A stretch of 64,000 bases of DNA from Buxus sempervirens (lineage: Eukaryota > Streptophyta > Magnoliopsida > Buxales > Buxaceae). The DNA lies in contig OX387183.1 in NCBI GenBank assembly GCA_947561395.2, forward strand, positions 60,619,915 to 60,683,914, in the 5' to 3' direction. Shown here piece by piece: positions 19,327 to 51,600 of the stretch (positions are counted from its first letter, which is position 1; the number at the start of each line of letters is the position of its first letter). The position numbers were made by a program, and so were the translations under genes. Under the pieces are notes generated by a model, which was not told the DNA's origin, did no database searches, and saw only the letters and a program-made list of their open reading frames with translations.

Positions 19327-19333
19327 CTCCCCC

Positions 19334-20749: not shown

Positions 20750-20800
20750 GGTTGTCCGATCCGTTGGAGCAACATGGTCACCACCATCTAGCTTTCTCTA

Positions 20801-23800: not shown

Positions 23801-23812
23801 TGAAGAATCCAT
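20801..23812 (-). CDS. Copia gag-protease-integrase polyprotein (5' part of gag-pol)
   Basis: 1003-aa frame. Gag with the UBN2-type retrotransposon domain fills roughly residues 30-230. A CCHC zinc knuckle is at C269-C272-H277-C282. The aspartic protease motif DSGA starts at D357. The integrase zinc-binding motif has H495, H500, C524 and C527, and the catalytic triad fits D554, D617 and E653 (IHSDVWG, LRSDNGG, NGVAERKNR). The C-terminal part contains the usual LVDCPPGKKPVG linker before RT and then stops (TAG at 20803-20801, followed by a second in-frame TAG). All enzymatic signatures appear intact up to that point. Normally this polyprotein continues into RT-RNase H. Confidence 0.93.
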   Translation of the reverse strand: MDSSSNNMPEPSQPRSVPTVVQSEGIFNAGIILNESNYDIWSQLMEMHIAEREKLSYIRCKTKPPAEFEDGYERWYAENQKVKRWILMSMTPEIMKRYVRLSTAYDIWSALSKAFYDGSDELQVFVLNQKAFTAAQKGKSLSEYYGELTGVFRELDHRDKVVMKDPDDIIAYRKSIERLRVHIFLAGLDASFDQVRGEILRKELVPDLEECYSLIRREVVRRATLVGESEKSEASAMMTRNRPTHNREDRQRDFPPKRTNGVDKLTYKCTHCNQIGHTKDRCFELVGYPEWWDHSRAARKKKTGPAAAAAVVATDVATDIGTDAEIQTSSVFVATTDNGGKVFNISSPVSNSAWIIDSGATDHMIFDSRQVNLLKPSSQQLVSTANGNTTPVIGEGSLSLTDTLNLTSVLVVPSLEYNLLSVSQITKALSCVVIFWPDCCVFKDIQTKQTIGCGIRRGKLYYLDLVSGISDKLHQVLAVNGYEGEKKISEIWLWHRRLGHASFGYLRKLFPSLFIKVDVSSFHCDVCEMAKSHRTPFPLSLTLSPLPFMVIHSDVWGPSKVNTLGGSRWFVTFIDDCTRMTWLYLMQSKGEVNSLFQKFHKFVETQYNAQVKILRSDNGGEYQSSELQKFLHAHGTIHQTTCSNTPQQNGVAERKNRHLLEVVRASLIAAHMPLSYWGEALTSAAYLINRVPSSSIEFQTPLQVLTTAVGTTSVPNLPPHIFGCVAFVHLYKHQRNKLAPRALRCVFVGYAIHQKGYRCYHPPTQRMFITMDVVFHEDEMYFLSESKLQGEYQKEIQTLDYDLIQYEYQICEETAAGEVCPNDVATPAATEPSVTETAENIAESDDGEWPETEGGTQIEGTGETEGITQSEDTSPFLFEGEPPVNIPHQSSTEDVLDRGSQPQIKQLPHRQTRGIPKPTYEPELSSRVKYPMSHYVSHKNLSESNQSFVNQLSTVAIPNSVQEALADPRWKVAMNEEMNALQKNQTWELVDCPPGKKPVGWAC

Positions 23813-23856
23813 CAGTTGTTGATGGACGACTTCAGCAATAATTCTTCAGATCGTTT

Positions 23857-23869
23857 GGCTCTGATACCA
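23857..23869 (-). promoter_or_regulatory. Copia primer binding site (iMet tRNA)
   Basis: TGGTATCAGAGCC directly adjoins the 5' LTR on the minus strand. It is the standard plant Copia site for priming minus-strand DNA synthesis with initiator-Met tRNA. Confidence 0.95.
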
Positions 23870-24191
23870 TGACGAAAATAGAAGATGAAGATAGAAGAAT
23901 TCAGATCTGGAAAAACAGTATTTCTTGCTGTATTTTTCATACCATTCATGGGAGTATTACATCACCCTTTATAGGATCTTACCTAACTATGAATAAAGAA
24001 AGAAGCTTTACATTCTGGAAACCTTCCAGAGAATATCTACAGCAGTACAATGAGTTAGGAAATGATTCAAAACAGATCCTATAATCAAGGAACTAATCAA
24101 GGAACCAATTCCTATAATCAAGGAACTAATTCTTAATCGGTTAAGGAAATAAATCTCCAGATCCTTCAATTTAGGAACTAATTCTTCAACA
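23870..24191 (-). repeat. Copia 5' LTR
   Basis: 322 bp, the promoter-bearing LTR in element orientation. It matches the 3' LTR throughout. It is followed by target duplication TCGAC. Confidence 0.95.
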
Positions 24192-25076
24192 TCGACATGC
24201 CCTCTCCATGAGTCTTATAATGAATTTTAAGAGACTCGTAGAGATCGTCTCATTCACGCATCGGAAAGCACTTAAGGTGAGCTTTTTGTTTTTATATTTT
24301 TACGACAATCGCAGAACATTACGAAACACACCATCCAACTCCGAATTGCGAATCCTGTCCTGCTTCCACAGCGACGACAATGTCCCCAACATCATCACTC
24401 TCCTTCCAGCTTCCAACCCAACTGAAGAAAGCCCAATATGTGTCTATATGGCTCACCTCGTCGAGCTCGGCGGCCGAGCTACCCCTTTGATTCTTCCCCA
24501 TAAATCCTGCAAGAAGAGAGCGTCAAGGCCTACAACCACCAACCACATTGTGTCTGCCTTCAAGAACTACTCATCTAACACATACGGCCTAGTCTCTGTC
24601 CAGCCCTTCACCATCGTGGCTCCATACAGGACCATGCACGAGAGCATTTACAAATTAGCTGATGAAAAGCTGATACCCTTCATTATCATCCCTTGCTCCA
24701 TGAACCAAGCGGTTCGTGGCGTAGGAAGCAGTGGCATACGTTCACTTAACAGTAGATTACTAGCTCTCGCGCCCTGTATGGTTGGGATCCTTGTCGACCG
24801 GGGTCTGCCTCCAAAAATTCGCTATACAAGCTTCTCTTATCATTTGGCAGTGGTGTTCTTAGGCGGAGAAGATGATCGTGAAGTGTTGGCATATGGGATT
24901 CGCATGTGTGAGGACCCGGGCGTGATGGTGACGGTGTTGCAGTTCATAGTATCGGACGAGAGCAAGGATTATGATGAAGAGAGGCAGCTTGATGATGCAT
25001 TTGTTGACGAGTTCAAGATAAAGAGCATTAGCAAACGCAACCTCTCCACAGAGCAGCAAAGGGAATCCCAAGAGAG
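24192..25076 (+). pseudogene. CHX cation/H+ exchanger pseudogene, C-terminal cytosolic part
   Basis: Continues the CHX frame after the Copia insertion: HALSMSLIMNFKRLVEIV joins SFR of the preceding sliver once the 5-bp duplication is removed. The last transmembrane segments are largely missing between about 24270 and 24320 (an internal deletion). The universal-stress-like cytosolic domain is then readable: SELRILSCFHSDDNVPNIITLL, SPICVYMAHLVELGGRATPL, FIIIPCSMNQAVRG, APCMVGILVDRG, VVFLGGEDDREVLAYG. The frame runs open from 24208 to 25095, an unusually long survival for a pseudogene. It leaves CHX sequence at about 25070, where a LINE fragment begins. Confidence 0.9.
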
Positions 25077-25554
25077 GCTGCGATTGGGTGTATAGCAAGA
25101 GATTACCAAGGCAAATGCCTTGGTGCCATAGCACAGAAGATTGGGATCACAGAGTTGTTGGTGGCAGAAGCTACAGCGGTTAGAAAGGCCAAGAATGGCT
25201 AACCATCTCAGGTTTCAAAAAGTGATACTAGAATGCGACTGCAGAAGCTTGGTTGGGATCTTGAACAAGGACAACGAACCACCCTGGAGAATAACTATTC
25301 TTGTGGAGGAGATCATGTTATTGGCCTCCCTCACCTCCCCATTCAAGCAATTTACAGAGAAGCCAATGCTGCTGCTGATGGCTTGGCTAATTTTGGCATC
25401 ACAAACTATTGCTGTTTCTGGAGTCAAAACTTGCCCGTATGTATGACAATATCGCGTCACTGCTGATGTTATGGACCGGACTTCTCCTAGAAGGATCCTT
25501 TCTTGTTTTAATTAATAAAGTGTGTTGTGACTGTTTTCCTATCAAAAAAAAAAA
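25070..25554 (+). mobile_element. 5'-truncated LINE fragment (RNase H end and poly(A))
   Basis: Begins inside the CHX coding region with an RNase H-type sequence in several frames: AAIGCIARDYQGKCLGAIAQKIG, LLVAEATAVRKA, VILECDCRSLVGILNKDN and AIYREANAAADGLANFG. This is the RVT_3 RNase H domain found at the 3' end of plant LINEs. A 3' UTR with an AATAAA-like stretch follows, then a run of A at 25544-25554. No target duplication could be fixed. CHX sequence resumes after it. Confidence 0.75.
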
Positions 25555-29239: not shown

Positions 29240-30899
29240 CTACTCCAAGCCAGCAACTTTGTACCTTAATTTTGTATTTTGACTTTCCTGTCAATAAGCA
29301 ATACAACAAGTCAATAAATATCGCATCACAAAAAACTATAAAAAAAACTAGATAACTAGAAAAGTTCTTATTGAACAACTATAAAGTCATTCACCTCCAA
29401 ATTATTAAAAACATTTTGGAGGGAAATTAATCAACCGAAATAAAGGCCACATTTCATTTAGGAGAAGCTTTATTCATCAAAAACTTGAGTTTATACACCA
29501 CATTCAATACGTACACTATCAAACACAAGCATCTAGAAACAAGTAAAAATCTGTCAGTTCAAGGTTAAAGTGCATGTGAGCTCAAGCTTCCTGAATCACC
29601 ACCCATACAAAGAATATGCAAACATAAAGCTCTAAGGAGATATGTAACCCACTTTTAAATGATCAATGCAGATCAATGCATTAAATGGAACCGTAATCCA
29701 ATTAATTACAGCTGAAAAGTATCCTTAGAAAAGTCATATAATCAGTTGAAAACTGAAGTAAGCATTAATAGCAGAAACTCTAGTACCCTAAATTGGTCCA
29801 TAAAACGATAGTTACCGACAATGTAATTTCAATCTTAAGAATGTACTGAAATTGCATATAAAATTATCATTAAAAAAAAAAAAAAGACGATGTCTCTGCA
29901 AAGCAAGCTCATATTCATAGGCGGATTCAAGAAACCAAAGAAATTGAAGAAGGTAAAAATTTGAAAACCTAAAATACAATCTCAAATCACCTGCTCAAGA
30001 ACCCTAGCCGAACTTTTCTCCACCAGCCGTGCTAAACCCTCCAGTTTAGCAAGCATCGTACCATATAAATCCTCCAACTCCGAAGTATACCTTGTAGCGT
30101 CAGAACCCATCAAACGACTCAGCCTCCCTACCTCAAAACCGTCCGCAGACATATCCAACTCTTTCTGCTCCTTCGACACCTGCTTCAGCTGCTTCGGATT
30201 ATCATTCCTGCCACACGCCGCCATTGACGAATCCCTCAATTCGCACGATAGCAATGGGAACGGAGAATTAGGGCAAAAAGCACCGTAATGCCCACGGAAT
30301 GCCGGTCCAATGTTCACGACATCCATAGATTTTGGCTCAAAAACACCGAGCGAACGGCGGAACTGAAACGTACGGTGCTCGTGCGTGTGGATCAGCTGAT
30401 CGGATAATGGTGTCGAAAAGACGATGAAGACACAAGGTGGAAAATCGATGGAGTTCGGCATATCGTCAGGCGGAATAAGATTTAGGGTCTTGCTGGCAAG
30501 AGAGGCAGAGACAGCAAATTCTCTCATGGAAGGTCGCAGATGGGTTTTACGCCGTCCGATGAACCAGCCGATAAGAGATGATCCTCGACAGCTGAGCAAG
30601 CGACGAAGTGCAGTGAGGTCAAGTCGACCCACAGGGTCGTAGAAGCTATTAACGGTGCCGGAGCAGAAATAGCCTGTAACGTTGGCAACCAGATTCGAGG
30701 AATCGGAGCGATTCGAAGAAGACTCGGTGCTGTCGTCGTCCGGAAGACCGGAGGGGGTTACGTGGGTGACATGACCGAAGAGGAGGCCATCCACGTCTCC
30801 GGGCGAGGATGAGAACCGCTGGATAATGGAAGCAAGTGTGGGGCCAGAGACCGCGATCTTCTGTAGAGGAAGATCGTCCATGGCCGTTTCCATTAACAA
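29240..30899 (-). CDS. Abraxas-like (FAM175) subunit, BRISC/BRCA1-A type
   Basis: Encodes a scaffold MPN-fold protein related to Abraxas/ABRO1, which holds the K63-specific deubiquitinase BRCC36 in BRISC and BRCA1-A complexes. Exon 1 (30899-29991) includes LQKIAVSGPTLASIIQRF, GDVDGLLFGHV, SLIGWFIGRRKTHLRPSMREF and a C-terminal helical segment likely to be coiled coil. No JAMM zinc-binding motif is visible, as expected for the inactive partner. The donor after VLEQ (CAG/GTGATT, 29991/29990) and an acceptor at 29288 join phase 0 to exon 2 (29287-29240), ESQNTKLRYKVAGLE, stop. The first Met is at 30899. MDDLPLQKIA at 30881 is the more family-like start, giving about 312 aa. The frame past the stop still looks coding (see findings). 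Confidence 0.85.
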
Positions 30900-30919: not shown

Positions 30920-31651
30920 GTTTCTGGAACGATGGAAGAAAGAAATGAAATCCCTACCTGATTCAGTATTTTGGAAGATACGTTAGTGTAAGATAAACCC
31001 CTGATTCATTCCTGAGTCCTGACTATGCCTGTGTAGGTCCCATCTCACGAGAACTCCCAAATATCTAACGGTTAGCTGCTTCGATGAACTCTCGTGCTTT
31101 TATTTCGCAATTGGTCACCCAAAAATGTAATCTGAAATGCTTAGTTGCCCTCGTTTCTTCGATTACACGCAGTTTCATATTAACCAGCTCTTTTTTTCTA
31201 TCACCAATTATTTTGATCAAAATGCCAAAAAGTTCTCAAAAATTGTGCTTAGTATTTTTAATTTGGAAGAGTAGCTGCACCAGTTAAAATTCTAAATTTG
31301 ATATGTTTCCAAGGTGCTCTCTCACTTATGTGTGTATATATGTAAACTTATATATTATTACTGTTGTTATTGTCATTATTATTATATAATTATTTTACCA
31401 TTGGATCAATAATTAATAATGAGATTTGCTTAACTAAACATTCTTTGGGTGATAATACAATATCCTAAACCATCAACCCGTGGTCTAAACCATAATCAAC
31501 TTCAACTACTAAACTTTTTTTTTTTTTGGGTTAATTCAACTACTAAAATTGCTCATAGAAAATGTTCCCCATTAGACTCTTAGCCACTGTTTTTTAAAGC
31601 CTAGAGTGGACTTGTTATTTACCTTGGCTCATCATTATCATAAGTCAGTTC
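30920..31651. other. Intergenic DNA upstream of the Abraxas-like gene
   Basis: Contains the presumed promoter and 5' leader of the minus-strand Abraxas-like gene near 30900-31080, then AT-rich DNA. No gene or transposon end is visible. It stops at CCACC (31652-31656), the target duplication of the LTR cluster. Confidence 0.5.
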
Positions 31652-34600
31652 CCACCTGTGCGCGGTGAAATCGCACGGCGGGGCACACGGGTCGTGTGCG
31701 TGCCTTCTAAAAATTGAGTACCGAAGTTGCCACTGCCTGAGAGGTGCAGGTAGACACAGGGTAACCTAACCGGGTCTATTTTGGTCTACGACTTGAGATT
31801 CTGACTAAATGCTCGGTTACGGTTCGGGGAAGTCTGAAGACACCCCGGTCCGCCCCATCGGTTGATGGGTCCCTCGGGTCTTCCTAGTTTGAATCAACTA
31901 TACTCACCCTTATCCTATTCCAGCATGTATCAAATTAAGTTTGATGGGACTTTCTGCAGGTGTAAGTCCCTTTTATTTATTTTTATCTTTTAGTTACTTA
32001 AGTGAAGTGGGTCTGGTATGGGTCCCTTTGGGAGACCCATAGGTTGCCGGGTTGGGCTTTAGCCCATGGCCCATTAGGGTTATTGGGTAACCCTTTTAGG
32101 AATTTGGTTATTTTGTTTTTAAATAATTTAGACATGCATTTAATTAAATTTGTTAAGATTTTTAAAAGAGGCTAATGGGCTTGATGGGCCCACAGGCCAT
32201 TAATCAATGGCCTTGACCCATTTATTGGGAAACGGGCCTTAGTGGGCCGGATCAGGTGTGGGCCCCGTTGGAAGGCCCACAAACATTATTTAGATCAAAA
32301 GTGGACTTGGGTCCACAAAGTGGGTTTGGGCTGACCCACGGGTCCAACTGGGTTCGGGTCATATCAACTTGGGTCGGATTGGGTCCAACCGGATCTTAAA
32401 AATTGGTTTTAAATATTTTAATAAAGATAACCGCACTTAGTCTATGTTTGCGGTTCGACCAAAAACTGATTTTTTCTGGAACTTTGGTCAGAAACTGCTC
32501 GCCGGTCTTTTCTCGACGTCCGCCGCCTTCTGCAGACTCCAGAACCGCTTCATAGTAGCTCAGATTCTTCATTTAAGCCAAAAATGGCCTTTTTCATGAG
32601 GCTGTAAATATTAGAGCATTTTCACTTTTGATTCCTCCTTTAGATTCCCAAGGAGAGACTCTAGATGTCTCTTCTTTGGTTCAAGGACTGATCCCTCCCT
32701 TTCATTCATGACAGAACGAGACTAAAGGCAAAAAAACCTTAAACCACACTAAACTCACCTAATCTATATGTATATACACCTAACCAAGATGAATGAAAAT
32801 ATGAATGAGACAAGAATGAACATATCATTGCATGAGGGCAACAATACACGATACTACACAATAACAAATCAAAAGTTAGATACTTAAGACTCTATGCATG
32901 CAATGAGATCAAGTTAGGGAAGCTAAAGAGGAACCCAAAAGAATAAATATGCATGGGTTGAAAGAAAGTTTCTTATGATTTTTTTTAGTGGATAAAAACA
33001 AATCTAAAATGGGTAGGAACATGGATGTGCATGAGACTCATTTCCTAAAAAAATGCTTCAAGGTGTGTGTGAAGGTGACTAAAAAAGATGCATGACATGA
33101 TGAACCTACATGTGCACGACTAAAATATTAAATAACCTATACAGCACACATAAAAGAGGATACCAATCACTTCTCTTGGGAGAAGGGAGAGAGGGGAGAG
33201 AGATCTTAAGGGTACAATACAGACCTAAAGGAGGACAAGCCCTCCTAAGAAGATCAATAATAACGATCAAGGGTACAGCTCTTACAACAACATTCTTTGA
33301 AGTTTATTCACAAGAACCTCCTCCTAAACCTTGATTTTACCAACTCCTCCAGATGTGCTGTGGTCCCAAGAAAGATGTTGACAACGATTTTGGAGCCTCC
33401 TTCCACTCCAAAGAGTCCTTTTCTTTGAACACTTTAAAGAGATGGTGATGAAATAAAATGGTGAAGAAGGATTACAAGGACAAAATGGGAAGTAACAAGG
33501 GTTTTTGTTGGTTGAAAGAGATGGGTTAGGATTTTTCTAGGTTCGGACTGGAGGGATGTGGACGAAGGAAGCCAAAGATTGAAGAGATTGGAGAGAGCCG
33601 ACCAGAGTGGGACAAGACTGGAGCTCCAGGGGCCAGCCAATTTAGAGAGAAAAAAGGGAGTGAGAGTCTCCTCTTTTTTTGCAGTGACCGAGTGGTCTAG
33701 TAAGTAATGATGGGCTGTAGCCCCTTTTTAAAAAAAAATCGAAAGGGCACTGTGCGCACCCAATTTCAGATCGCACGCGAGGTGCATGTGAAATGATGCT
33801 CGCCTCGAGACTGATTTGGAGTCACCACTGTCTGAGAGGTGCAGGCAGACACAAAAGGGGCACCTATTCAGGCCTAATTATTCTGATCTGCGGCTTTATT
33901 AGAGATCTGAGCAAGTTTCCGGTTACGTCTAGGGAAGTCCGAAGACACCCTAGCCCGCCCCATCAACTGACAGGTCCCATGGGTCTCCTTGGTTTTGAGT
34001 CAACTTAATTCTCACCCAATTCCTAAGCCAGCATGCACACTTATTTGGTCTGAGTGGGGACCATTGAAGGTGTGGGTCCCCTTTTTATTTGATTTTATCT
34101 TTTTATTAAGTAATGAAGTGGGTCTGGTATAGGCCCTGTTGGAGGGCCCGGTGGAACCCATGTTGGGCTTTAGTCAAGCCCAAGGCCCAAATCGGGTTAT
34201 TGGGTAACCCTTATTGGATTTTGGCTATTTGGTGTAAAGATTCAATTATATTTACACAATTTAGTGGGTTTGAGTTTTTTAGGGCCCATTGGGCTTGGAC
34301 TTGGCCCATGGGCTGTTAACTAAGTGGCCTCGGGCCCATTTATCAAAATGGACCTTGGTTAGGCCAGACTGGGCATGGGCCCCTTTGGAGGGCCCAAGAA
34401 GCCTTTGGTGGCCCGTTGGGCCCACAGTCACAAAATGGGCTTGGAAAAGTCCAAGAAGCCCAATGGGTCGAGTTGGGTCTAAATGGGTCCAAAGAAAAAT
34501 GATTTTTAAATTACTTCCTAATCTGCCCGTATTTACTGTGCGGGCGGGCTTAGCCCGTAAACGCATTACGGTTTAGGCCTGCCCGTATAGTACATACGGG

Positions 34601-36639
34601 CACGCCTAGACCGTACAAAAAATGCGGTTTTCCCCGATTTCCTAAAAACATCACGGCAGCCTCGAGATTTGGTTTGTCTGCTTCTTTTTCGCCGTCGGCC
34701 ATCTTCTGCTGGGGTTATCTGACTTCCATAATGATAGAATCGCCCTTTTCTTAGTCCATAGGGCTTCCTTTTGTGTGTCCCGCCAAAAAAACAGATTTTA
34801 TCTTTTCGCCGTGCACCTAGGCCACTCACAAACCTGTCTGTGTAGAAAATCAAGAAGGGAGAGAGGGGGAGAATCATGGGATACAACAAGAATTAAAGAG
34901 GACAGGACCCCTCTTGTATTAAATCAATCAAAAGACACGGAGTTCTGACTTCAAACAAATCTTTCTACTATCATGAAGATACCATCTTCCCATTTTCTCG
35001 TACGGGGAGTCCCCCTTTTCCATGGGGACTCCCTCAGTATTTGCAACAAAACTAGATAGTTAGTATAAAAGTAGGAAATATAAATCTAAAGATAACAACA
35101 GAAATTATTGAAGAGATTTTTTATTTCAATGAGTATTAGAAGAAAACATTACATTACCTTAGTATTACCTTGCCTGTAGGAGGTGTGGAGATACTCCGGT
35201 TGATTTTGGCAGCGCTTCCGCACTCCCTTTGATTATCCGAAATGGGTTTGAACAGAGCTTTCTTGCTATTGGAAATGAAAGGGACAAAAGGAGAAAGCAA
35301 AAGGGTATGGCCTAGGGGCAATTTAGGGATAAAATTATGCTTGAAAAATGAGAGGGCATTTGAACAGAGTTTTGGACGTGGGAGAAGCCAAAAACCGGAG
35401 AGGGTGGAGGCTAGGGGAACCAGCTTGCACAAATGGGGGGCTGGCCCCCTATTTATGGCCAAAATTTTCGTGCCCGTATTTGAAATGCGGGCATGCCTTG
35501 CCCGTACTTCAAATGCGGGCGAAAAACGCACATTTTCAAATCTCGCCGAATCGGCCGTACGGGAATCGTGTCCCGCCGTAAAGCGACACACGTCCCCTTC
35601 TAGAAGCTCGCCCGTATTTGAAATGCGGGCATGCCTCGCGCGCACTTCAAATACGAGCGCGCACGTTTTTTAAATGTTCGGATTTCAAATTTTTATCCAA
35701 TTTGATTTTTAAACAGATTTTATTCTGATTTTATGATTATTATATTATAAAAACGAGATTCTTTTATTAAAATATTATTAAAAATAAAGATATTTCTATT
35801 AAATGATTATTTTATTTATTTAATTCATTTATTCTGCTTTTTTGCTGCTGTTTTGCCACATGGGTAGCTTTCTTTGAAACTTCAACTGCCCATAACTTTT
35901 TCGTCCGATGCCCGATTTTAGCAAATTTGGTGTCGTTGGAATCGGCTCGGAACCCACTATCCATTGGGATTAAGTTTGGTAGCTGAATTGGGGTCGAGCA
36001 AAAAGTCAACTTTCGCTCCCCCAAAAGTTTGACAGGCTCCTAACTTCCTCATCCAAACTCCGATTCCAACAAACTCAGTTGCGTTGGAACCGTGTCAAAG
36101 TGCTCTTTTTAATGAGATGAAGTTTGATGGCCAAATTTACTTGAATCAAAAAGTCAATTTTTTACCCCCTTTAAGGTTTGACTTTTAGTTTGACTTTTCA
36201 TTTTTCTTCATTTTTGCGGTGCAAAAATCAGGTGTCTACTGTTGACCAAAAATTTGAATCTTAATCAATTCCTGATCAAACATGATTTCACCCGATTATG
36301 TGGGTTTTTATTTCATGGGGTACGGACCCATCCAGGGTGTCTAGGTTACAGAACGATCCCCTTAATTATAACTCTAAAATATTAAAGAAAACCCTTTGAT
36401 GCTAACTTAATTCACAAGACTTGATTACTTGTGTGGTTGGGATTGATTTGGTTTGTTTTAATTGTGACTGAACCCGGTTTGATTTATCGGGTTGCCTACG
36501 TACCCAATTATTTGGGATCAAGTCATAACGTAGTTCAAAAGAATAATTTGAGTTTGAATTTAAGGTATTATATTTAATTTGGTTTATTTTAATTAATTGG
36601 ACCATTAAGATCCGGTTCAATTGGGTTTAATTTGAATGG

Positions 36640-37000
36640 TTTAATGTTTAAGGCATTGGACCGTAAAAGATCATACCTTGGATTAAACCATTTGAGTTTA
36701 ATTTGAGTTAAACCGCAAAGAGGAAACGGTTTGATTTGAAAAGATTTGATTTGATTTAATTTAATTTAAGTGGTTCAATTTCAAAGGCATTGGACCATAG
36801 AAGAGCATACCTTAATTGAACCAAGAAGTTTAATTGATTTAATTTAGGTTGAACCGAAAAGGGAAAACGATTCAATTTAAGGGAATTTAATTTTGTGTGG
36901 TTTAACCCCAAGGCATTAGACCGTAGATCCTACCTTAGGTTGAACCACAAGGTTTGATTTGATGGATTAGTTCAATTAAACCACTTTTATGACTTGAACC
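36640..37000 (+). repeat. Diverged tandem repeat, about 130-bp unit
   Basis: Three diverged copies share AAGGCATTGGACCGTA-like cores near 36650, 36783 and 36911. Each is followed by GATC/AGCATACCTT and an (A)AACC-rich tail. It lies inside LTR C. Confidence 0.7.
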
Positions 37001-37188
37001 GTAAAAGGGGAAATGGTTTTAATTTGTTGGTTGAATGTAATCACTTTAATGTGTATGGGGGGCTGGTTTGAACCATCTTGATTGCAATATGTTATTTAAT
37101 TTGGCTTGATGCCATTAATTGCATAATTTGGTTCAATTTTAGGATGATTTTTGGTTTATTTAGTTTAAGGACAATTCCGGTCCGATTT

Positions 37189-37840
37189 GAATTATTTATA
37201 GTCCAGTTTTAGTTTAAGGACGATTTCGGTCCAATCTGAGTTTGATTTGGTTCAATTTAGTTTAAGGACGATTCCGGTCCAATTTGAATTGAAATTTGGT
37301 TTATTTTAGTTTAAGGACAATTTCGGTCCAATTTGGATTTAAACTTGATTTATTTTAGTTTAGGGACAATTTCGGTCCAATTTGAATTATTGTTAGTTCA
37401 GTTTTAGTTTAAGGACGATTTCGGTCCAATTTGAGTTTGATTTGGTTCAATTTAGTTTAAGGACGATTCCGGTCCAATTTGAATTGAAATTTGGTTTATT
37501 TTAGTTTAAGGACAATTTCGGTCCAATTTGGATTTAAACTTGATTTATTTTAGTTTAGGGACAATTTCGGTCCAATTTGAATTATTGTTAGTTCAGTTTT
37601 AGTTTAAGGACGATTTCGGTCCAATTTGAGTTTGATTTGGTTCAATTTAGTTTAAGGACGATTCCGGTCCAATTTGAATTGAAATTTGGTTTATTTTAGT
37701 TTAAGGACAATTTCGGTCCAATTTGGATTTAAACTTGATTTATTTTAGTTTAGGGACAATTTCGGTCCAATTTGAATTATTGTTAGTTCAGTTTTAGTTT
37801 AAGGACGATTTCGGTCCAATTTGGATTTAAACTTGGTTCA
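37189..37840 (+). repeat. 195-bp higher-order tandem repeat
   Basis: The marker GAATTATT starts at 37189, 37384, 37579 and 37774, an exact 195-bp period for three full copies and part of a fourth. Each 195-bp unit is built of four shorter units of about 49 bp sharing TTTAGTTTAAGGACGATTTC and GGTCCAATTTG. Copies two and three look essentially identical while the short units differ from each other, so the large unit was amplified most recently. Confidence 0.92.
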
Positions 37841-40565
37841 ATTTAATGGTTCAATTGATTTGAGACCTTTTGGTCTAATATTGAACACTTTTGGAACACA
37901 TTAAGGTTGGTTTGAAGTACTTTTGGGTGCATTTAAACACTTTTACATATAAAAAAGAGAAGCAATTTGATTTTTACATCATGGATTTTGATGTAATTTT
38001 GGGATTTTTAGCTTCCAGGAAGGTCCAATGATTTTTATGGATTTTCTGGAATTTTTCTGGGGCCAAATCGGGCTTGAATTTGGCAAAATATGCATTTCTG
38101 GGTTAAACCGGGTTGATTTTCTGGTTCAATTGCTGCCGGTTCAGGCGATTTGGGCCTGTTTTAAATCCATGGGTCACGGCTGGGTCAATTCCAGCGTAAC
38201 AGGCCGGGCGAATTGACCTGACCCGCGCGCGGGCCGCAATTGGGCCTGTGTCCATGCGCGCGGGTCTTGAAACTGGCGGAACGGATCGGGCCGAGAAATG
38301 GACCCGCGCGGGTCGCGTCTGGGTCAGAGACATGGGCGCATGGGTCTTGGGCACGGCCAGGCCCGAGGCGCCTGGGTTTAGAGCGCCTGGGCTCAATGCA
38401 AGGCCCAGTTAGCTATCTGATGTGCGCAGGAGCCCAGGACGCGGCCCAGGACGCTGAAACAGTCCTTTTTGCCCTTGTTTAACCTTCGAATTTGCGATTT
38501 CTGCCACTGCCGAACCCAAGATGCTTGCAGGTCCGTTTTTGGCCGGATTTTGGGTATTTTTAGCCCAATTTCATGACTATAAACTCAGATTTTAACCCAG
38601 AAAATTATTTTAAAGATTTTAGATCATTTTAGGGAATTTTCACGCAGGAGTTTGGATGACCCAAATATGAGTCTCCAACTCTCCCCTTTTTTGGGGGTTT
38701 ATCTTATGAAGTCCAGGTGGTCCTGAAAAGAACCCCTGGCCCTTCGAATTTGTTTCACGGAAGAAATTGAAGATTTCCTTATCTTTAATCCTAATCCAAT
38801 TAGGATACAGAGTCCAGGTGACCCTAATAAGAGTCCCTGACTCTCTGAAATTAATCGGAGAACAGATTAAAAATAAGGATAAGATTAGGGAGAAGAAAGA
38901 AAAGAGATAAACCTCATCTAAATCTTACATTTTCTTTCTTGTGATAATCTTCTGTCACTCTTCAAATCAAGCTTTTTGTTATCCTTCAAAACCCTGCGTA
39001 TCCTTTTTTCTTTTGGCTTCTCTCCCTTTTCCAACCTCTCCCTCCTCCTTTATCTTAACCTTTTATAAGGTTTCAACAAAAGGTTGTTACGAGAGGAGTG
39101 GGAGAGAATATGGGAAGTGGGATGTTGGGAAAACCTCCCACTTCCCATTTGCTTGACACATGGCCACCAAACAACAACTTTAGTAACCACCCATCATCCT
39201 TCTCTCCTATTTTCTCTCTTATTCCTTTGAGTTTGTGACACATGGAAAGAAGTGGGGTCCACTTCAAGCAAATATCCCCCTCTTTTCTTTATCCTTTCTT
39301 TAAAACAAGAGAGAGGGACGTACCCTCCTCTCTTATCCCCTTTTCTCTTTTTTAAAGGAGGAGGAGGGAGGGAGCCACATGGCATGTGGTCCCCACCTCA
39401 AACTTTGACTCCTTCACACAACTCTTGAGAAATTGTGCATGGGCATGACTATGTTTATTTTTATTTTTGAATTATCTTTTATAAGAGAGAAAGGGACGTC
39501 CCTTCATCTCTATATATATATTTTTTATTATTATTTTTTATCAACATTTATCCCTTTATGTCTATTGAAATTTTTTATTTCAACATCTACAGGCACTCAA
39601 AACAAAATAAAAAAAGAACATACAAAAATGAGAAACAACTTTGCTCACGTCTGCATAACTTACATGTGCGGACGTAAAGAAACAAAGAATTCAGCCTAAA
39701 TCCTTACCTCCTTATCTTTGCAATGTCATTTTATTATTGTTACTTTTTTTTTTAAAAAGCCTGCTTTCCCAATTTGCCCCTCATGTCTTGTACATGAGAG
39801 AATTCTTTTTTTTTATCTTAAATATATCAATTAGATACTTTTCAAAATAACATTATTATATTCTTAGATTTTTTATTTAATGTCTTTTCTTTGATCTTTG
39901 CCACATGTGCAGATTTTCCCAAGATTTTGACTGCTCATAACTCTTTCATCTAGTGCCCGATTTTAGCAAACTCAGTGTCGTTGGTGTTAGCACCTGATTT
40001 TTGCACCCCAAAAAATGCAGACAATAAAAATTTCAATTAAAAAGTCAAACCCTGAGGGGCCTGAAAATTGTCTTTTTAATCCAAAGAGAATTAGCCATCA
40101 AACTTCCTCTCATTAAAAAGAGCATTTCGACACGGTTCCAACGCAATTGAGTTTGCAAGAATCGGAGTCCGGATGAGGAAATTATGAGTCGGTCAAACTT
40201 TTGGGGGAGCGAAAGTTGACTTTTTGCTCGACCCCAATTCAGCTGCCAAATTTAATCCCAGTGGATAGTGGGTTCCGAGCCGATTCTAACGACACTAAGT
40301 TTGCTGAAATCGGACATCAGACGAAAAAGTTATAGGCAGTTGAAGTTTCAAGAAAGCTGCCCATGTGGCAAAACAGTAGCAAAAAGCAGAATAAATGAAA
40401 AAAATAAATAAAATAATTGTTTATAGAAAATATCCTAATTTTTAATAATATTTTAATAAATATCTAAAGATATTTTAATATAATAATCATTAAAATTGGA
40501 TAAAAATCTGTTTAAAAATCAAATTTAATAAAGAGTTTGAAATTCGCCACTTTTAAAACGTGCGT

Positions 40566-40780
40566 GCCCATATTTGAAGTACGGGCGGGGCATGCCCGTA
40601 CTTCAAATACGGGCACACCTTCTGGAAGAGACACGCGTCGCTGTACGGCAAGACACGTGTCCCGTACGGCCGATTCGGCAAGATTTGAAAATGTGCGTTT
40701 TTCGCCCGCACTTGAAGTATGGGCAAGGCATGCCCGCATTTGAATTACGAGCAAGGCATGCCCGCACTTCAAATACGGGC
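40566..40780 (+). promoter_or_regulatory. Array of five palindromes upstream of the LTR D TATA box
   Basis: Five 21-bp imperfect palindromes of form GCCCGTA-(7 nt)-TACGGGC at 40566-40586, 40594-40614, 40704-40724, 40732-40752 and 40760-40780. Most are separated by a 7-bp spacer ending GGCAT. The last ends 14 bp before TATAAATA (40795). Four further palindromes of the same kind lie downstream at about 44581-44684. Confidence 0.85.
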
Positions 40781-41100
40781 ACGAAAATTTTGGATATAAA
40801 TAGGGGGCCATCCCCCCCATTTGTGCACGCTAGTTCCCCTAGCCTCCACCCTCTCCGTTTTTTGGCTTCTCCTACGTCCAAAACTCTGTTCAAATGCCCT
40901 CTCATTTTTCAAGCATAATTTTATCCCTAAATTGCCCCTAGGTCATACCCTTTTGCTTTCTCCTTTTGTCCCTTTCAATTCCAATAGTAAGAAAGCTATG
41001 TTCAAACCCATTTCAGATAATAAAAGGGAGTGCGGAAGCGCTGCCAAAATCATCCGGAGAACTTCAATAGGTCAAAACTAGGTAATACAAACAAGGTGAT

Positions 41101-44100
41101 TGTAAGCACCTCATTTTTGCGCTCCCCAAAAGAGCCGGAAATGCAAAACCCGACTAAAAAGTCAAACCCTGAGGGGTCGAAATTTGACCTTTTGATCAAG
41201 TGGTGATTGGCCACCTTGTTTTATCCCATTGGATAGAGCATCCCGACACGAGTCCAACGCAACTGAGTTTGCTGGAATCGGAGTCCGGATAAAGGTTCTG
41301 TGGGCCGATCAAACTTGAGGATGAGCCGAAAGTTGACTTTTCCTCGAACCCCGTGCCAAGTGCTTAGCCCTATGTCATTGGATAAAGGGCTCTGATATGA
41401 GTCTAACGCAATTGAGTTTGCTCAAATCGGAGTTCGGATGAAGGAGATATGAGCTGTCGAAGTTTCCGAGCAGCAAAACCGGAAACTGCACACGTGGCGC
41501 GGGAACTGCCCACGTAGCAGCCAACGCAGCAAAATATCTCAGGGACCAAATCTTAAATATCCAAAATTCGCAGGGACCAATCCGTAGATATCCAAAAGTG
41601 TCAAATCGGTCGAATCAGTCAAGTCGAGGGGCAAATCCGTAATTTTTTGATTTGTATCCGGTCAAATATGCCGGATACACATACCCTTGTGTATGTCTGG
41701 ACTCAAATGCTGGATACAATAAGATTTTCGCGCGAGATTCGCACTGATCGCCCGACAAATTCGCGGCGGCATTTAATTTTCGAATGATCATGTTTTGTAT
41801 CCGGCATTAAATGCTGGATACAAAGGAGCCTCTGTGTAACCGGCCATAGAGGCCGGATATGAAGGGTACTTAGTGTATCCGGCCTGAGTTGCCGGATACA
41901 TTAAGTTTGTCTATAAATAGGAAACAGCAGCTCATTTTCGGGGTTGGTTGTTTTGGCTGTTCTTGAGCTCTCCTCTCTCACCTGCTCCCCTCCGAATCCC
42001 CCCTCTTTCAACTCCCTTTGGCCCTTCATCACCTCTCCACACCACCCAAGCCCTTCTTATCATCCTCTTCCTCCTCCATCTCCATTCACAACCCAACAAG
42101 AGGAGGAACTGCTGCTGTTGCTGTCAAAAGGAAGAGCTTCCAGCCATTGTCACAGCCTCAAGGAGGAGTCTTCACCCCGTGCTAGGGCATAAGAACCTTC
42201 AGGTAAGGTTCCTCATCACCTTGTGTAATACATATATTAAAATGGATTTTTTTTAAGGAGTTCAAAGAATCTGATCTCCCATTGCCGCATGGCTATGTTA
42301 GTGATTCTTTGCATGCATTTTCTTCCATAGTTTGGTAATATAGTGGCCTCCAAGGGCAAGTGAGCCCCTATGCATGATTTTCGGATAGAATGAGGAGCTT
42401 TGTTGTCCCATTCTAAGGCACTAAGTGTGCTGTTTTGAGGGCCTCAGTTACTCAAGGAAGGGAGCATGTTCCCTCATGCAAGGAATGTCTAATGTATCCC
42501 TATGTAAACCCCCTTCCCTCACCCTTCTCTACATTTTCGTGGGTTTAAGTATAAGGTTTTGGGTTTAGATGGCGCTAAGAGGTGGACAAGATGTATGTTA
42601 GATCACGGTTCATCCCATTGGTTTCCTCGCATGCATTAGTTTTTTACCTTGCTGATTTCCTTACCTCTTGCATGCTATGTTTTTTTGTTAGTTGATAAGG
42701 AGTGCTAGACTCCCTTAGTTATACCTGTTGGTTTATGCATGGTAAGTTATCTTCTTGCATGCATGCATGTTTTGGTCAACCATGGGAGCATGTCTCAAGT
42801 CCTGGATTCAAAGGGTTCTCCATGGACCCTTGTCGTGTGCTGGGATGGGGATTCAGAAACCAAAGCAAGGACACCTTGGTCCCTGCCAGGTTGACACACA
42901 TGATCCCGAGTGGAAGAGGCAGTCCGGATGCCTCTTCCCCCATTGCCTTGCTGGAAAGTCCCAAAAGAAGGCCGAAATGGGGTCTCCCCCAGGTCTGAAC
43001 CACTGTGAGCCCACCCAGGGGCCCACACAATTGCTAGAACACCCCTGGAAAACTCAGAAACCCAACCCCCTTGAAAAAAGCCGAAAAACAGCTCCTGTGT
43101 GTTGATCCGACAACTCAAGCCGGATCAACTGGGACCTGTGTATATCTGGCAACTAAGGCTGGATACACTAGTCCCTGTGTGTAGCCGGCATCTCAGGCCG
43201 GCTACATTGCCGAAAATCCAATTTTTCCATTTTGTTTGGTCTTGTGCAATTTTCCTATTCTTTCCATTGAACCGGATGATCCAGTAGGGTTTCCGGGCCA
43301 CCCGGAAACCCAACTTGGGACTTGGGCCACGGTCCAACTTGGTACATCTGTGGGCCTTCCAACGGGGCCCACCAAGCCCAATGAACACTAAAGCATGCCA
43401 TTAAACAACTTAAATAAAATGAACCAATTGAATCGGGTGGGCCAAACTCAATGCGGCCCACCCGAACCTTGATCTGTGGAATAATGCATGAATTGTGTGG
43501 TATGGCCGAGACCCCGGGCTAGGGCCTATCGGGTCCGCCAAAGCCCATTAATCGGACTTAGGAAGGGTGCAAACCCTAAGCCTCCAGGAGCTAGGCCTTC
43601 AAGCCTAAAGTCGAACTACGGGCCCCAAGCCCAACGTCCAAATCATACTGGCAAAATTAAATAAGATAAACTAAAAACATCCTGGCAACCATCGGGGGCC
43701 CACCTAGGGGCCCACGAACCAAGGCAAGCCCACTAATTGCATGGAAATCACTTAAGTTTCAAAATTGAACAATTAAAATAAAACCAACACATTTAACCAA
43801 AGCCCAAAGGGCCTCCTAGGACTAAATAGAGGCCCACCAAGGGCACAAGGGCTTAAACCAATCCCGCCAAGGACATCGTGGGCCTTCCAACAGGGCCCGC
43901 CCAATCAGATTCAGACAACTTAAGTCAAGCAAAGATAAAATCAACTAAAGGGACCCACACCACTCAGGTGGTCCCGCCAAGACTTAACTAAGTGGCATGC
44001 CGGATTAGGAATCGGGTGAGAAACCAAAATAAAGCTGATTCAAACTAGGGAACCCACGGGACCCGTCATTCGACGGGGTGGACTGGGGTGTCTACGGACT

Positions 44101-44253
44101 TCCCCAGACCACAACCGAGACCGCAACTTAGAATCTCAAGCCGCAGATCCAAAGCCCAAAATAGACAAGATTAGGCACCCAGGTGTCCGCCTGCACCCCA
44201 TCAGGCGGTGGCAACTCCAAATTCCCCCGTGCTGCGTTTCCCACGCGCACACA
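41101..44253 (+). mobile_element. Solo LTR E, nested in D
   Basis: Plus-orientation LTR of 3153 bp with ends TGTAAGCACC and CGCGCACACA. It is flanked by GTGAT (41096-41100) and ATGAT (44254-44258), one mismatch. A TATA box (TATAAATA) is at 41912-41919. A leader-like CT-rich stretch follows, with a possible splice donor (CAG/GTAAGG) near 42201. It is related to A, B and D at both ends (start TG...AGCACCT.ATTTTTGC; end GGCGGTGGCAACTCCAAAT) but different in the middle. Confidence 0.82.
41653..41900 (+). promoter_or_regulatory. Array of five palindromes upstream of the LTR E TATA box
   Basis: Palindromes of form TGTATCCGG-(about 9 nt)-CCGGATACA at about 41653-41679, 41690-41718, 41794-41824, 41834-41860 and 41874-41900. 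The last ends 11 bp before TATAAATA (41912). Three more of the same type follow downstream at about 43102-43128, 43139-43167 and 43180-43206. The layout is the same as in LTR D but with an unrelated arm sequence. Confidence 0.85.
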
Positions 44254-46103
44254 ATGATCTTTTATTTTATTCTACATTTGACGTATATGCAAATCCCTTC
44301 GTTTTAAGCCAATTCTCTTTTTATTCCTCTGGTGTTTTAATTTGTTTGTTTCCTTTGTACACAATGTGAGAATCCTTGGTAAGAAGGGTATCTCCACGTG
44401 AGAAAGAAGGCCGCAATTAAAGAAACAGAACACCGAAAAAGGAGGCGTCTGAACTAAGCATTGCAGATTTCAACCATTTAGAAGTACGGAAATCACCGAT
44501 CAAGATTGGCGGAGGGCAAAAAGGAGCGGACGACACAAAACCCGAGACCGCGGCGACCATTTCTTGTAAATCGAGCAAAAACCGTATTTGAAGTACGGTT
44601 CAGGCTCACCCGTATTTAATGTACGGGTAGGCCTAAACCGCACTATATTTACGGTTTAGCCCAGCCCGTATAATAAATACGGGCAAATAAAGAAATAACT
44701 TAAAAATCAACTTTTTTGGACCCGGTTGGACCCAATCCGACCCATTGTTGTAAGACTTGACCCATTGGGCATTTTGGACTTTTCCAAGCTCATTTTGAGA
44801 CTGTAGGCCTAAGTGAGCCCACCAAGGCTTCGTGGGCCCTCCAATGGGGCTCACATCTCGACTGGCCTAACCAAAGCCCGTTTTGATAAACGGACTAAAG
44901 GCCACATGATTAACTGCCCGTGGGCCAAATCCAAGCCCAATGGGCCATAAAAAACTCAAACCCGCTAAATTGTGTAAATATAGATCAACCTTTAAACCAA
45001 ATAACCAAAATCCAATAAGGGTTACCCAATAACCCGAATTGGGCCTTGGGCTTGGCTTAAGCCCAACTTGGAATCCTTTGGGCCTTCCAACAGGGCCCAT
45101 ACCAGACCCATTTCATTAACTGTTAAAAAGATACAAATAAAAAAGGGGACACACACCATCAATGGTCCTCATTCAGACCAATTAAGTGTGCATGCTGGCC
45201 TAGGAAGGGTGAGACTTAAGTTGACTCAGAACCAAGGAGACCCATGGGACCTGTCAATCGACGGAGGCAGGTTAGGGTGTTTTCGGACTTCCCTAGACGT
45301 AACCGAGAACTTAGCCAGAATCTCTAAAAAGCCGCAGACCAGAAAATTAGGCCCGGATAGGTGCCCCTTTGTGTCTGCCTGCACCTTTCAGGCAGTGGCG
45401 ACTCCAAATCAGTCCCGAGGCGAGCATCACTTGGTATGCACCTCGCATGCGATCCGAAATGGGGTGCGCACAGTTGGGATCAGTGTGAGATTCCATATCC
45501 ACTTAACTTGAGTTTAGCAGCGAACTGAGATTTTTAGCAGAAGTGAAAAACTGCTATCTGGAAGTCAATTTTGCTCATATCTTTTAATCCGGGACCCCGA
45601 TTCCAGCAAACTTGGTTGCATTGGAATTGTGCCAAAGTGCTCCTACTGCTGGGACCAGATTAGACGGCTAATCTGGGTTTTAGCAAAAAGTCGATTTCTG
45701 CTATTCCCAATTTTGACCAGCTCATAACCTCTTCATCTAGACTCCGATTTGGACAAACTTGGTGTCGTTAGAACCGTATCGGAATCCTCTTTCCAATGGT
45801 ATGAAGTTTGGTGGTCAATTCGCACTGGATCAAAAAGTCAACTTTTTGACCCTTTAGGTTTGACTTTTCAATTGGGTCTTCATTTTCGGCACTTTTGGTG
45901 TGCAAAAATGAGGTGCTGACACCACTATGGTAGGGTCCGTGATACTATCCTTGTCTCTCCATCCCACTTTATCAAAAGTCATATTTTTAGTTAATTTATA
46001 TTTTTGTAAATCTTATTTTATAAATTCCATCCATATCTTTTTTAGGTCTTTCTCTTGCTCATTTAGGACCTTCAATCTTCATACTCTTGAATTATCTAAT
46101 CGG

Positions 46104-46855
46104 TAGGGCTACAACTCGGTGCGATTTGGTTTAGGTTGGCCTCAACCCAAGACCAAACCAAGGTTACTGATGGTCAGCCCAAAACCGAACCAAACCGACC
46201 CCAGAACCGAAATACCCAAACCTAAAACCAAACCGATTATTTAGAGAAAACTCATAACCCAATCCAAACCGAACCGAATTACAAAATTCGGTTCGGTTTG
46301 GCTCGGTTCGGGTCATTTTCTCATACTTAAAACCTGTTATCAAGAGAGAGATTCCTACTTTTGCCCAAAAAAATAAATTTAAAGAATACACAACAAATTT
46401 TAAGGATCATCACTTACATGGAGTCCAATCCCTTAAGTAGTTAACATGCATACATAAGATGGAGCAAAGAGCTTAGAATCCCAAGTCATATGTTAAATGT
46501 TTTGGATCGCACTTTTGAGCTTGTGAATCAATTTAATAATTAATTACAAAGATTTATAAAATAATAATCTTATTCATTAATTTAAAAGTTATATTCTATT
46601 ATTACAACTTTATCTATTGTATATTTTATATATATTATTATATTTCGGTTTGGTTTTATACTTAGGAAATTCAGTTTGGTTTTCAGTTTGGTTCGGTTAA
46701 CCCGAGCCTTCAACCCAAAACTGAACCAAACAAATTCGGTTATCTATTTTTAAAATCAAAACCTACCCAAAGACTATATAACCCAAACCAAACCGAGCCA
46801 AAGTCGGGTTGAACCTATTTGGTTTCGATTTTAACTGACCCAAGTTGCAGCCCTA
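46104..46855. mobile_element. hAT-type MITE
   Basis: 752 bp with terminal inverted repeats TAGGGCTACAACTCGG and TAGGGCTGCAACTTGG (right end, reverse strand). The flanks CTAATCGG (46096-46103) and CTAATCGA (46856-46863) form an 8-bp target duplication with one mismatch, as for hAT elements. The interior is rich in AACCGAACC repeats on both arms and has no coding capacity. Confidence 0.8.
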
Positions 46856-46993
46856 CTAATCGATGCATCTTTAGGTCTTTACTTTATATGACCAAACCAC
46901 CTTAACCTACTTTTCTCCATTTTATCTCTAATACATGCTATGCCTATAACCACTTTCGAGTGTCTGTGTTTTGGAATGAAATCGTCTACCATC

Positions 46994-48627: not shown

Positions 48628-51600
48628 ATGATGGGCTCTGAGAGCCAGGGCTTTTACGCATCTAGAGAAGAAATGGAGAGTCTCGTTCTCGACGAACCAT
48701 CAGACGCGAAATGCTTCTCTAATTACCGAAGTGCCGTGGCGTCTCTATCTGAAGCGGATCATCCCTTATCGCCGCCTTTCGTCGTCGGCGTTGCATCCCA
48801 CGATGATCCGTTGCTCTCGCGTTCGCCACACGAAGATAATCGAAACCCTAATTTTTCCGAGAACTCGTACCTTGAACCCCCATCATATGCTGATGTGATT
48901 TTCAGTCCGTTCGATGAAGAGAATGGCGATGCCAATGGTATCGGAAGCCCTATCGAAGATTCGGGAAGCTCGGGAACTCTATTGGGATCCGCTTCGTCGA
49001 ATTCAGAGTATATCAAGATTTCTGTCTCTAATCCTCAAAAGGAGCAGGAAATTTCGAATTCACTTGTTCCTGGTGGTAGCACTTATATTACTTATCTGAT
49101 CACGACCAGAACGAACATGCCGGATTTTGGTGGAACGGAGTTCAGTGTTCGGAGGCGATTCCGAGATGTGGTGACCTTGGCGGATCGGTTAGCCGAGTCT
49201 TACAGAGGATTCTTTATTCCGCCAAGGCCAGATAAGAATGTAGTGGAGAGTCAAGTCATGCAGAAGCAGGAGTTTGTGGAACAGAGACGAGTGTCATTGG
49301 AGAAGTACTTGTCTAGATTAGTCTCGCATCCGGTGATTAAGAAAAGTGATGAGCTGAAGGTGTTTTTACAGGTAGAAGGGAGGCTTCCGTTGCCAACAAC
49401 CACCGATGTGGCCTCAAGGATGCTCGATGGTGCTGCGAAGCTTCCAAAGCAGTTGTTTGGGGAATCTGTGAGTATGGTTCCTCCACATGAGGTGGTGCAG
49501 CCGGCAAAAGGTGGGAGGGATCTGTTGAGGATCTTTAAGGAATTGAAGCAGTCAATGGCCAATGATTGGGGCAGTTCAAAGCCGCCGGTGGTAGAGGAAG
49601 ATAAGGAGTTCTTGGAGAAAAAAGAGAAGCTGCAGGATCTTGAGCAGCAACTCAGCAATGCATCTCAGCAGGTGATTTTTCACTTGAAGCTCTTCTTTGT
49701 ATATTCCTTCCGTTATGCAGATTAGATTTTTTTTCCGTTAGCTATCTTTAGTGGTGATCTTTACCTCACCCGTTGGCGGCAGGCTGAACTACTTGTCAAA
49801 GCTCAGCAAGACATTGGAGAAACAATGGGAGAATTAGGGTTAGCATTTATAAAACTGACCAAATTTGAGACAGAGGAGGCTATCCATAACCCTCAGAGAA
49901 TACGAGCTGCTGATATGAAACGTGTGGCAACTGCTGCTGTCAAAGCAAGCAGATTTTATCGGGAACTAAATGCACAGACTGTCAAACATTTGGTATGCTA
50001 CGGAACTTCTCATGATTATTAATCTCTGAAAACTTCCTACTTGTTGATCTTTGAGATCCAAATATTCAACACCTTTTCTATCGGGAATCAAATCAACACA
50101 GTTATAATGGTCAGTAGAAGTGAAAAGTTTGGTGTTAGGCTTTGGAAATGAGTTTATTCTGTTGTTTAATTTTGCAGGATACGTTACATGAATACCTTGG
50201 ATTGATGTTAGCTGTTCACGGTGCATTCTCAGACCGCACAAGTGCTCTTCTTACTGTTCAGACTCTTCTATCAGAACTGTCTTCGTTGCATTCAAAAGCT
50301 GAAAAACTTGAAGCTGCATCATCCAAAATATTTGGTGGTGACAGATCTAGGATTCGAAAACTAGAAGAGTTGAATGAATCCATAAAAGGTACCGAGGACG
50401 CTAAAAGTTGCGCAATTAGTGAATATGAACGCATCAAGGTAACATATTTCTTCGTGTTATTATGCCATTTGCCAGAAATTAGATCTATTTGCTCGCATGT
50501 TAGATGTTATTGGTCCCATGATTCTAAGATCTTTTTGTAGATTGGCAGCCTAAAATCTAGATATGATCTATTTTGCGTTTAATCTAGAGCTACTGACATT
50601 GCCCTGTGTGCCATTACCATATATACATGATTTTTCTTGGTACCAAGCCTCCTGTGCTGTGGGTGCTATATGTATGGCTTATAAACCAAAGCAGTTATTT
50701 ATTTTTTTCCCTATTTAATGAATAACAAAGAATGTCTTCAATATAAAGTGGATAAATCCAATGTAAAAGTAGTATACCCTCCAGTAAGGCTAGAGAAGCA
50801 CCATAACCAAGCTGGAAAAAAAAGGGTAATATAGATTGATAACACTGATCTTTCCTCACAAACAATTACAAGTCGACCCCTTTGGATTTTCCGAAGTTAA
50901 AAGGAATCATGGAAAAATGTGTGATGGCACTCAACGAACCCAGCATCTCTTTTAAATTCCTCCCGTTCCTTTCCTTCAAAATTAATCAACTAAACATAGA
51001 TCGAACATATTTTAAAATAGAAGGAATCTTATGCTTCCACATCAGTTTTCCATGGTGCAGAGAAAATCATGGAAATCATAAGGACCCCAAATCTATCCTA
51101 GAAAAAAATACAAGCCTTCAAGGTGAAGTTACGGTGCAATGGTTACTTGTGTACTGAACTGGATAGTATCATTGCTTTGACGGCATCATCGGTCTGTATA
51201 AGGAAAGAATTTTTGCTCACCTCAGTTGTAGATATCATTAGAGATATGGCCTCAGTTGTTTATTGGTTAGCCTTTGAGGTCGATTGGATGTAGAGTGTAT
51301 TACCTTTATTGTCGTGGTTCTTCCTTTTGTCTTTCTTTTTTATCTCTTTTTGCTCATCAGCAGGTTCCCATCTCTCATGGGCCCCTTGCTTTTTTTGTAT
51401 TTTTCCCCTTTCCTTTAATGAATTTTATTATTCATAAAAAAAGGAAAAAAAAAATAGTTAGTAGTGTATTGTTTAAACTTGTTTGCATGTAATACATCTC
51501 TAAAAAAAAAAAAATTTGGAGAATCTGTTCAGAATTGTCAACTTTCTCAAGATGGGATTGCTCGTGTAAGAATTTTTTCTAAGGATCCGTAACAAATGAA

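What the first reader, a model, noticed from the sequence alone, without database searches (positions are those of the whole stretch)
31652..45926. Five solo LTRs nested in three tiers, resolved to the base
A 14.3-kb gene-free block is explained fully by LTR A (31657-45921) containing B (33751-39591) and D (39985-45472), with C (36240-39585) inside B and E (41101-44253) inside D. Target duplications are CCACC/CCACT, GGCAC/GGCAC, TCTAC/TCTAC, GTTGG/GTTGG and GTGAT/ATGAT. All five lack an internal region. This implies repeated LTR-LTR recombination and a strong preference of these LTRs to insert into one another. C landed one base from the end of B. The order of events is A first, then B and D, then C and E.
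Basis: partly seen in the sequence, partly recalled or inferred. Interest (0 to 1): 0.78.

Follow-up and report, generated by a model that had tools for sequence, protein, structure and literature searches.

The report
Five nested solo LTRs, plant DNA
Between two plant genes lies a pile of five old jumping-gene remnants, each inserted into an earlier one and later trimmed to a single end-repeat; the layout is real and clean, but this kind of nesting is ordinary in plant genomes.

Summary
All five intervals have TG..CA ends and the stated 5-bp duplications (3 of 5 perfect, 2 of 5 with one mismatch) and nest without crossing. Duplications alone prove little: 750 TG..CA intervals with a perfect duplication exist in the surrounding 15.5 kb. 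Homology decides: A, B, D and E are one LTR group, and similarity stops exactly at 5 of their 8 ends. The D site in A reads through against B and D; the C site restores a D-like end for B; the E site is weaker; the B site cannot be checked. No element has terminal direct repeats beyond 10-14-base chance matches, and none of 26 ORFs of 85 aa or more reaches a Pfam cut-off. Solo LTRs are the best reading, but no full-length relative could be examined. The claimed 'strong preference' for inserting into one another is not shown: one locus, picked for its nest, and inserts in internal regions would have been lost.

The parts
31657..45921 (-). LTR A, outermost and oldest by nesting; arms 31657-33750, 39597-39984, 45478-45921 (2926 bases)
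   Evidence: TSD CCACC/CCACT; right end coincides with D and E ends by homology; strand inferred from alignment to D and E
33751..39591 (-). LTR B inside A; arms 33751-36239 and 39591
   Evidence: TSD GGCAC/GGCAC; 81% and 86% identical to D over two long stretches, left end exact; strand inferred from alignment to D
36240..39585 (.). LTR-like element C inside B, one base from the B end; unrelated to the others; carries a 195-bp tandem array at 37151-37845
   Evidence: TSD TCTAC/TCTAC, 6-bp inverted ends; tandem array
39985..45472 (+). LTR D inside A; arms 39985-41100 and 44259-45472
   Evidence: TSD GTTGG/GTTGG; both ends exact by homology; empty site continuous with B and D
41101..44253 (+). 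LTR E inside D
   Evidence: TSD GTGAT/ATGAT; left end exact by homology with D and A; TATA at LTR position 812 against 811 in D
40564..40781 (+). hairpin array of D upstream of its TATA box (40795)
   Evidence: inverted repeats; RNA folding z -6.2 and -2.8
44579..44683 (+). hairpin array of D downstream of its TATA box
   Evidence: z -8.9
35472..35662 (-). hairpin array of B, upstream place
   Evidence: z -4.2 and -4.3
34524..34615 (-). hairpin array of B, downstream place
   Evidence: z -6.0
41794..41906 (+). hairpin array of E ending just before its TATA box (41912)
   Evidence: z -9.3
43101..43207 (+). hairpin array of E downstream of its TATA box
   Evidence: tandem array 43107-43201 and folding z -6.6

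Best explanation
The block is a nest of five solo LTRs in plant intergenic DNA. Retrotransposon A inserted first with a 5-bp target duplication; relatives B (same strand as A) and D (opposite strand) inserted into A; an unrelated element C inserted into B one base from its end; a more distant relative E inserted into D. At some time after its own insertion each element lost its internal region and one LTR by recombination between its own two LTRs. Shown: ends, duplications, nesting, kinship of A, B, D and E, absence of recognisable internal and coding sequence. Inferred: that the copies once had internal regions, the deletion mechanism, and the strands of A and B. Not determinable here: when each deletion happened relative to the later insertions, and which superfamily the elements belong to.
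For: Ends, duplications and arm homology; empty-site alignments at C, D and E; no terminal direct repeats beyond 10-14-base chance matches in 5 of 5; no Pfam match at cut-off in 26 of 26 stop-to-stop ORFs of 85 aa or more; TATAAATA at LTR positions 811 and 812 in D and E. Solo LTRs and nesting are well known in plants (PMC7251063 and PMC6911290, abstract and passages seen).
Against: No full-length relative was seen. The B site in A gave no resolvable alignment and the E site in D only a moderate one. Two of five duplications have a mismatch. CpG depletion is not a clean clock: A is lowest (observed/expected 0.52), as expected, but E, nested in D, is at 0.56 against 0.84 for D, though base composition differs between them.
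Confidence: 0.93

Rival explanations
1. The units are complete small non-autonomous elements (TRIM or LARD type) with short terminal repeats, not solo LTRs.
For: Lengths of 2.3-3.3 kb and no recognisable coding sequence would fit such elements.
Against: The first and last 600 bases share no direct repeat beyond chance-level matches of 10-14 bases in 5 of 5. The two ends of A, B, D and E are different sequences, each matched to the same end of the others.
Confidence: 0.03
2. These elements actively target their own LTRs (self-targeting integrase or chromatin-guided insertion), which produced the nest.
For: The four members of the group found in the 64 kb (BLAST E up to 1e-4) all lie in this one nest. 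Autoinsertion in some families is reported (PMC6911290).
Against: The same paper's abstract says LTRs are not commonly targeted. The insertion points lie at different LTR positions, counted from the U3 end on the arms: about 444 (D in A), 832 (B in A), 1116 (E in D) and one base from the end (C in B); A cannot be aligned near the B site, so a shared place for B and E is not fully excluded. Target sites show no TSD-centred palindrome (13 pairs in all against 15.4 expected, P of at least this 0.79). C is unrelated. It is a single locus with strong selection of the case.
Confidence: 0.1
3. Some of the single LTRs arose by integration of a one-LTR cDNA or by recombination between different elements rather than within one element.
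For: No internal sequence remains to tell the routes apart.
Against: Recombination between different elements would leave unmatched flanks; here 5 of 5 pairs match at 4 or 5 of 5 bases. The one-LTR cDNA route is not excluded by any search.
Confidence: 0.04

Closest known systems
Solo LTRs of plant LTR retrotransposons (PMC7251063; abstract and passages seen)
   Same: Single LTR with TG..CA ends and 5-bp duplication; internal region absent
   Different: Five stacked in one block; four are relatives; LTRs of 2.3-3.3 kb are long against the 552-bp median LTR length given in that paper
Nested LTR retrotransposons with autoinsertion (PMC6911290; abstract and passages seen)
   Same: Relatives inserted into older relatives; 5-bp duplications
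   Different: That study counts pairs of nested and original elements and finds LTRs not commonly targeted; here only LTRs remain, so other targets could not be seen
Sirevirus palindromic repeated motifs (PMC2829016; section 9 and passages seen)
   Same: Several copies of a lineage-specific palindromic word upstream of the TATA box in the LTR; the word of E resembles the Citrus one in the paper's Table 3
   Different: Here the words form longer hairpins and a second array downstream of the TATA box; superfamily unknown; the B/D word has CCG..CGG order, not CGG..CCG

Membership tests
Solo LTR | TG..CA ends | tested here: met
   5 of 5
Solo LTR | Target duplication of the size usual for LTR retrotransposons (5 bp) | tested here: met
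   3 of 5 perfect, 2 of 5 with one mismatch
Solo LTR | No second LTR and no internal region | tested here: met
   No terminal direct repeats beyond 10-14-base chance matches in 5 of 5; no Pfam match at cut-off in 26 of 26 ORFs of 85 aa or more
Solo LTR | Sequence is the LTR of a full-length element elsewhere | not tested
Solo LTR | Promoter signal inside | tested here: inconclusive
   One exact TATA word each in C (+ strand, the only strand scanned), D and E; none in A or B
Sirevirus (Ty1/copia) | Palindromic repeated motifs upstream of the TATA box in the LTR | tested here: inconclusive
   Arrays present in B, D and E; the words searched for are absent from A; CGG..CCG order agrees for E only (against the letters)
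Sirevirus (Ty1/copia) | Conserved PBS and PPT next to the LTR, and coding lineage | not testable with these tools
   No internal region remains
Ty3/gypsy lineage | Gene order with integrase after RT and RNase H (recalled) | not testable with these tools
   No coding sequence remains

The most novel reading that the evidence does not exclude
The LTRs of this group carry two arrays of strong hairpins, one just upstream of the promoter and one downstream in the transcribed half. The hairpin word differs between lineages (B/D against E) but is shared by both arrays within a lineage, as if both sites track one changing partner: a DNA-binding protein, or pairing between the two ends of the genomic RNA, where both arrays would lie.
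Probability: 0.2. Interest if true: 0.5.

Novelty: new member of a known kind. Interest (0 to 1): 0.25.

Why it matters
The block is a clear worked example of layered insertion and trimming in a plant genome, and of why nesting in solo LTRs must not be read as target preference without correcting for what was deleted. The hairpin arrays are a testable side lead on how long LTRs are controlled.

Tried and rejected
Self-targeting as the cause of the nest: rejected as unproven (see rivals). Palindromic target preference: no signal. CpG depletion as an independent clock: A fits, E contradicts. CpG decay between aligned B and D was split (B only against D only: U3 side 4 against 8, U5 side 14 against 6) and says nothing firm. 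Hidden coding sequence: none at cut-off in 26 of 26 ORFs of 85 aa or more; five weak matches at E 0.086-0.27 in four ORFs, all below cut-off, were set aside. Search for relatives in viral contigs by a 15-base LTR word: 42 stretches, all 42 then compared with the arms by BLAST at E up to 1e-3, no hit; 42 is about what chance gives by my own rough estimate. Rfam on the whole window at gathering scores gave one match, MIR390, outside the block. Literature: no paper in the held library has both 'solo LTR' and 'nested solo LTRs', a test of wording only; listings 12, 31, 39 and 40 were seen but only the papers named here were opened. Searches looked for hairpins or palindromes in LTRs; one search listed the Sirevirus paper. 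PMC11656987 was opened for passages and not used.

Full report
WHAT IS THERE. The window reads as flowering-plant DNA (an AP2-domain protein, a PX-domain protein, an LRR protein with kinase domain, a Copia element; MIR390). The organism was not identified. The block 31657-45921 lies between an MPN-domain ORF (29982-30899) and a PX-domain ORF (48628-49725).

HOW STRONG IS IT. A perfect 5-bp duplication between TG..CA ends is cheap: 750 of 479,189 possible intervals of 0.5-15 kb in 31000-46500 have one. What makes the case is homology. Arm-by-arm BLAST shows A, B, D and E to be one LTR group. B and D are closest (81% and 86% by BLAST over two long stretches; K2P 0.167 and 0.110). The longer matches of the other pairs lie at about 70-76% by BLAST (some short ones are higher) and at K2P 0.21-0.30 in local alignments of their better parts. 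Similarity stops exactly at the stated bases for A right, D left and right, E left and B left (5 of 8 ends). B right is reached to 6 bases; A left and E right only to 68 and 31 bases. With ends so guided, the duplications become a test, which 2 of 4 pass perfectly (B, D) and 2 of 4 with one mismatch (A, E).

EMPTY SITES. D in A: the joined flanks align through the junction against both B and D with no gap at the junction (a one-base gap follows a few bases on); E aligns too, less closely. E in D against B: clear similarity on one side, moderate through the junction and weak beyond. B in A: A has diverged there and the one relative tried (D) does not align convincingly; that junction rests on the ends of B and its duplication.

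SOLO LTRS. No element has a direct repeat linking its first and last 600 bases beyond chance-level matches of 10-14 bases in C and D. None of 26 ORFs of 85 aa or more, stop to stop, reached a Pfam cut-off. D and E have TATAAATA at LTR positions 811 and 812, so they are read on +; A and B, aligned in reverse, on -; no exact TATA word was found in A or B. C has one TATAAAA word on +, the only strand scanned, and its strand is left open. That each element lost its inside by recombination between its own LTRs is inference from matching duplications and from established knowledge of solo LTRs.

ORDER. A before B and D; B before C; D before E. B against D, and C against D or E, are not ordered by geometry. 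Nor is the time of each deletion. CpG observed/expected (A 0.52, B 0.74, C 0.73, D 0.84, E 0.56; rest of window 0.63) agrees for A and disagrees for E.

PREFERENCE. The four group members found in 64 kb sit in one nest. Uniform insertion into 40.9 kb (the window outside seven masked ORF or Copia intervals and outside the nest, plus A; other exons were not masked) would put both B and D into A with probability about 0.005, E into the nest 0.17 and C 0.22. The window was picked for its nest, selection removes insertions near genes, and insertions into internal regions would have been deleted with them. Published work on 1491 nested pairs reports autoinsertion in some families, but also that LTRs are not commonly targeted (PMC6911290, abstract). 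So the preference claim is not shown.

HAIRPIN ARRAYS. B, D and E have arrays of strong hairpins upstream and downstream of the TATA position. Eight pieces, chosen because they hold the inverted repeats, fold better than shuffles (z -2.8 to -9.3; 7 of 8 better than all 200 shuffles, 1 of 8 equalled or beaten by 3). Bases in stems exceed the highest of 10 shuffles in 5 of 5 elements, by least in C (284 against 272). Upstream and downstream arrays share 8-mers within a lineage (B 14, D 26, E 18; shuffle means 1.3-1.7, maxima of 200 shuffles 12-16, so B and E are only just above the highest shuffle). Between B/D and E arrays 0-8 are shared, within shuffle range. These shuffles keep single-base content only. 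Of the words searched (5 typed, 3 distinct apart from reverse complements) A holds none; two of the three also occur 2 and 8 times in the rest of the window, so the words alone are not specific. The nearest published feature is the palindromic repeated motif of Sireviruses, upstream of the TATA box with a CGG-CCG core (PMC2829016); the paper also reports copies before the envelope gene, and a second LTR array downstream of the TATA box was not mentioned in what I saw, beyond 92% of copies lying in the upper half of the LTR. Whether these LTRs are Sireviruses cannot be tested without internal regions.

OTHER LTR FEATURES. A 37-base word recurs (25-36 of 37 bases matching) at LTR positions 155/303 (B), 156/304 (D), 156/305 (E) and 153/300 plus position 3 of the next arm, about 447 by my count (A), a spacing of 147-149. 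TTGACY words are frequent in the U3 parts: A 6 (444 bases), B 4, D 3, E 5 (820 bases each), against means of 0.7-0.9 and a maximum of 4 in 300 shuffles each, so only A and E exceed all shuffles. That TTGACY is the WRKY W-box is recalled, not from a call.

VERDICT. A correct and careful reading of an ordinary kind of structure; the claim of targeting goes beyond the data.

Noticed in passing
34524-34615, 35472-35662, 40564-40781, 41794-41906, 43101-43207, 44579-44683: Arrays of strong hairpins on both sides of the TATA position in LTRs B, D and E; the word differs between B/D and E but is shared by the two arrays of one lineage.
   Followed up: partly
39985-40349, 41101-41466, 45478-45921, 35876-36234: A repeat with 147-149 base spacing at the same U3 places in all four related LTRs; the spacing is close to nucleosome length, perhaps by coincidence. 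D inserted at the edge of the third copy in A.
   Followed up: partly
37151-37845: Tandem array in C: 195-bp unit, 3.6 copies, 97% matches, with a 49-bp sub-period.
   Followed up: no
19005-24191: Full-length Copia element on -, with identical 322-bp LTRs and TCGAC on both sides (the duplication scan stopped short of its end), and Copia gag, integrase and RT domains in two ORFs. Identical LTRs suggest a recent insertion.
   Followed up: partly
24208-25095: CHX17-like cation antiporter fragment directly beside the Copia element; possibly a gene or pseudogene cut by it.
   Followed up: no
46103-46856: About 750-bp element with imperfect inverted ends (15 of 18 bases) and TAATCG on both sides, perhaps a hAT-like MITE (class recalled).
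   Followed up: no
4285-4456: MIR390 precursor, 87.9 bits against a gathering score of 77.
   Followed up: no
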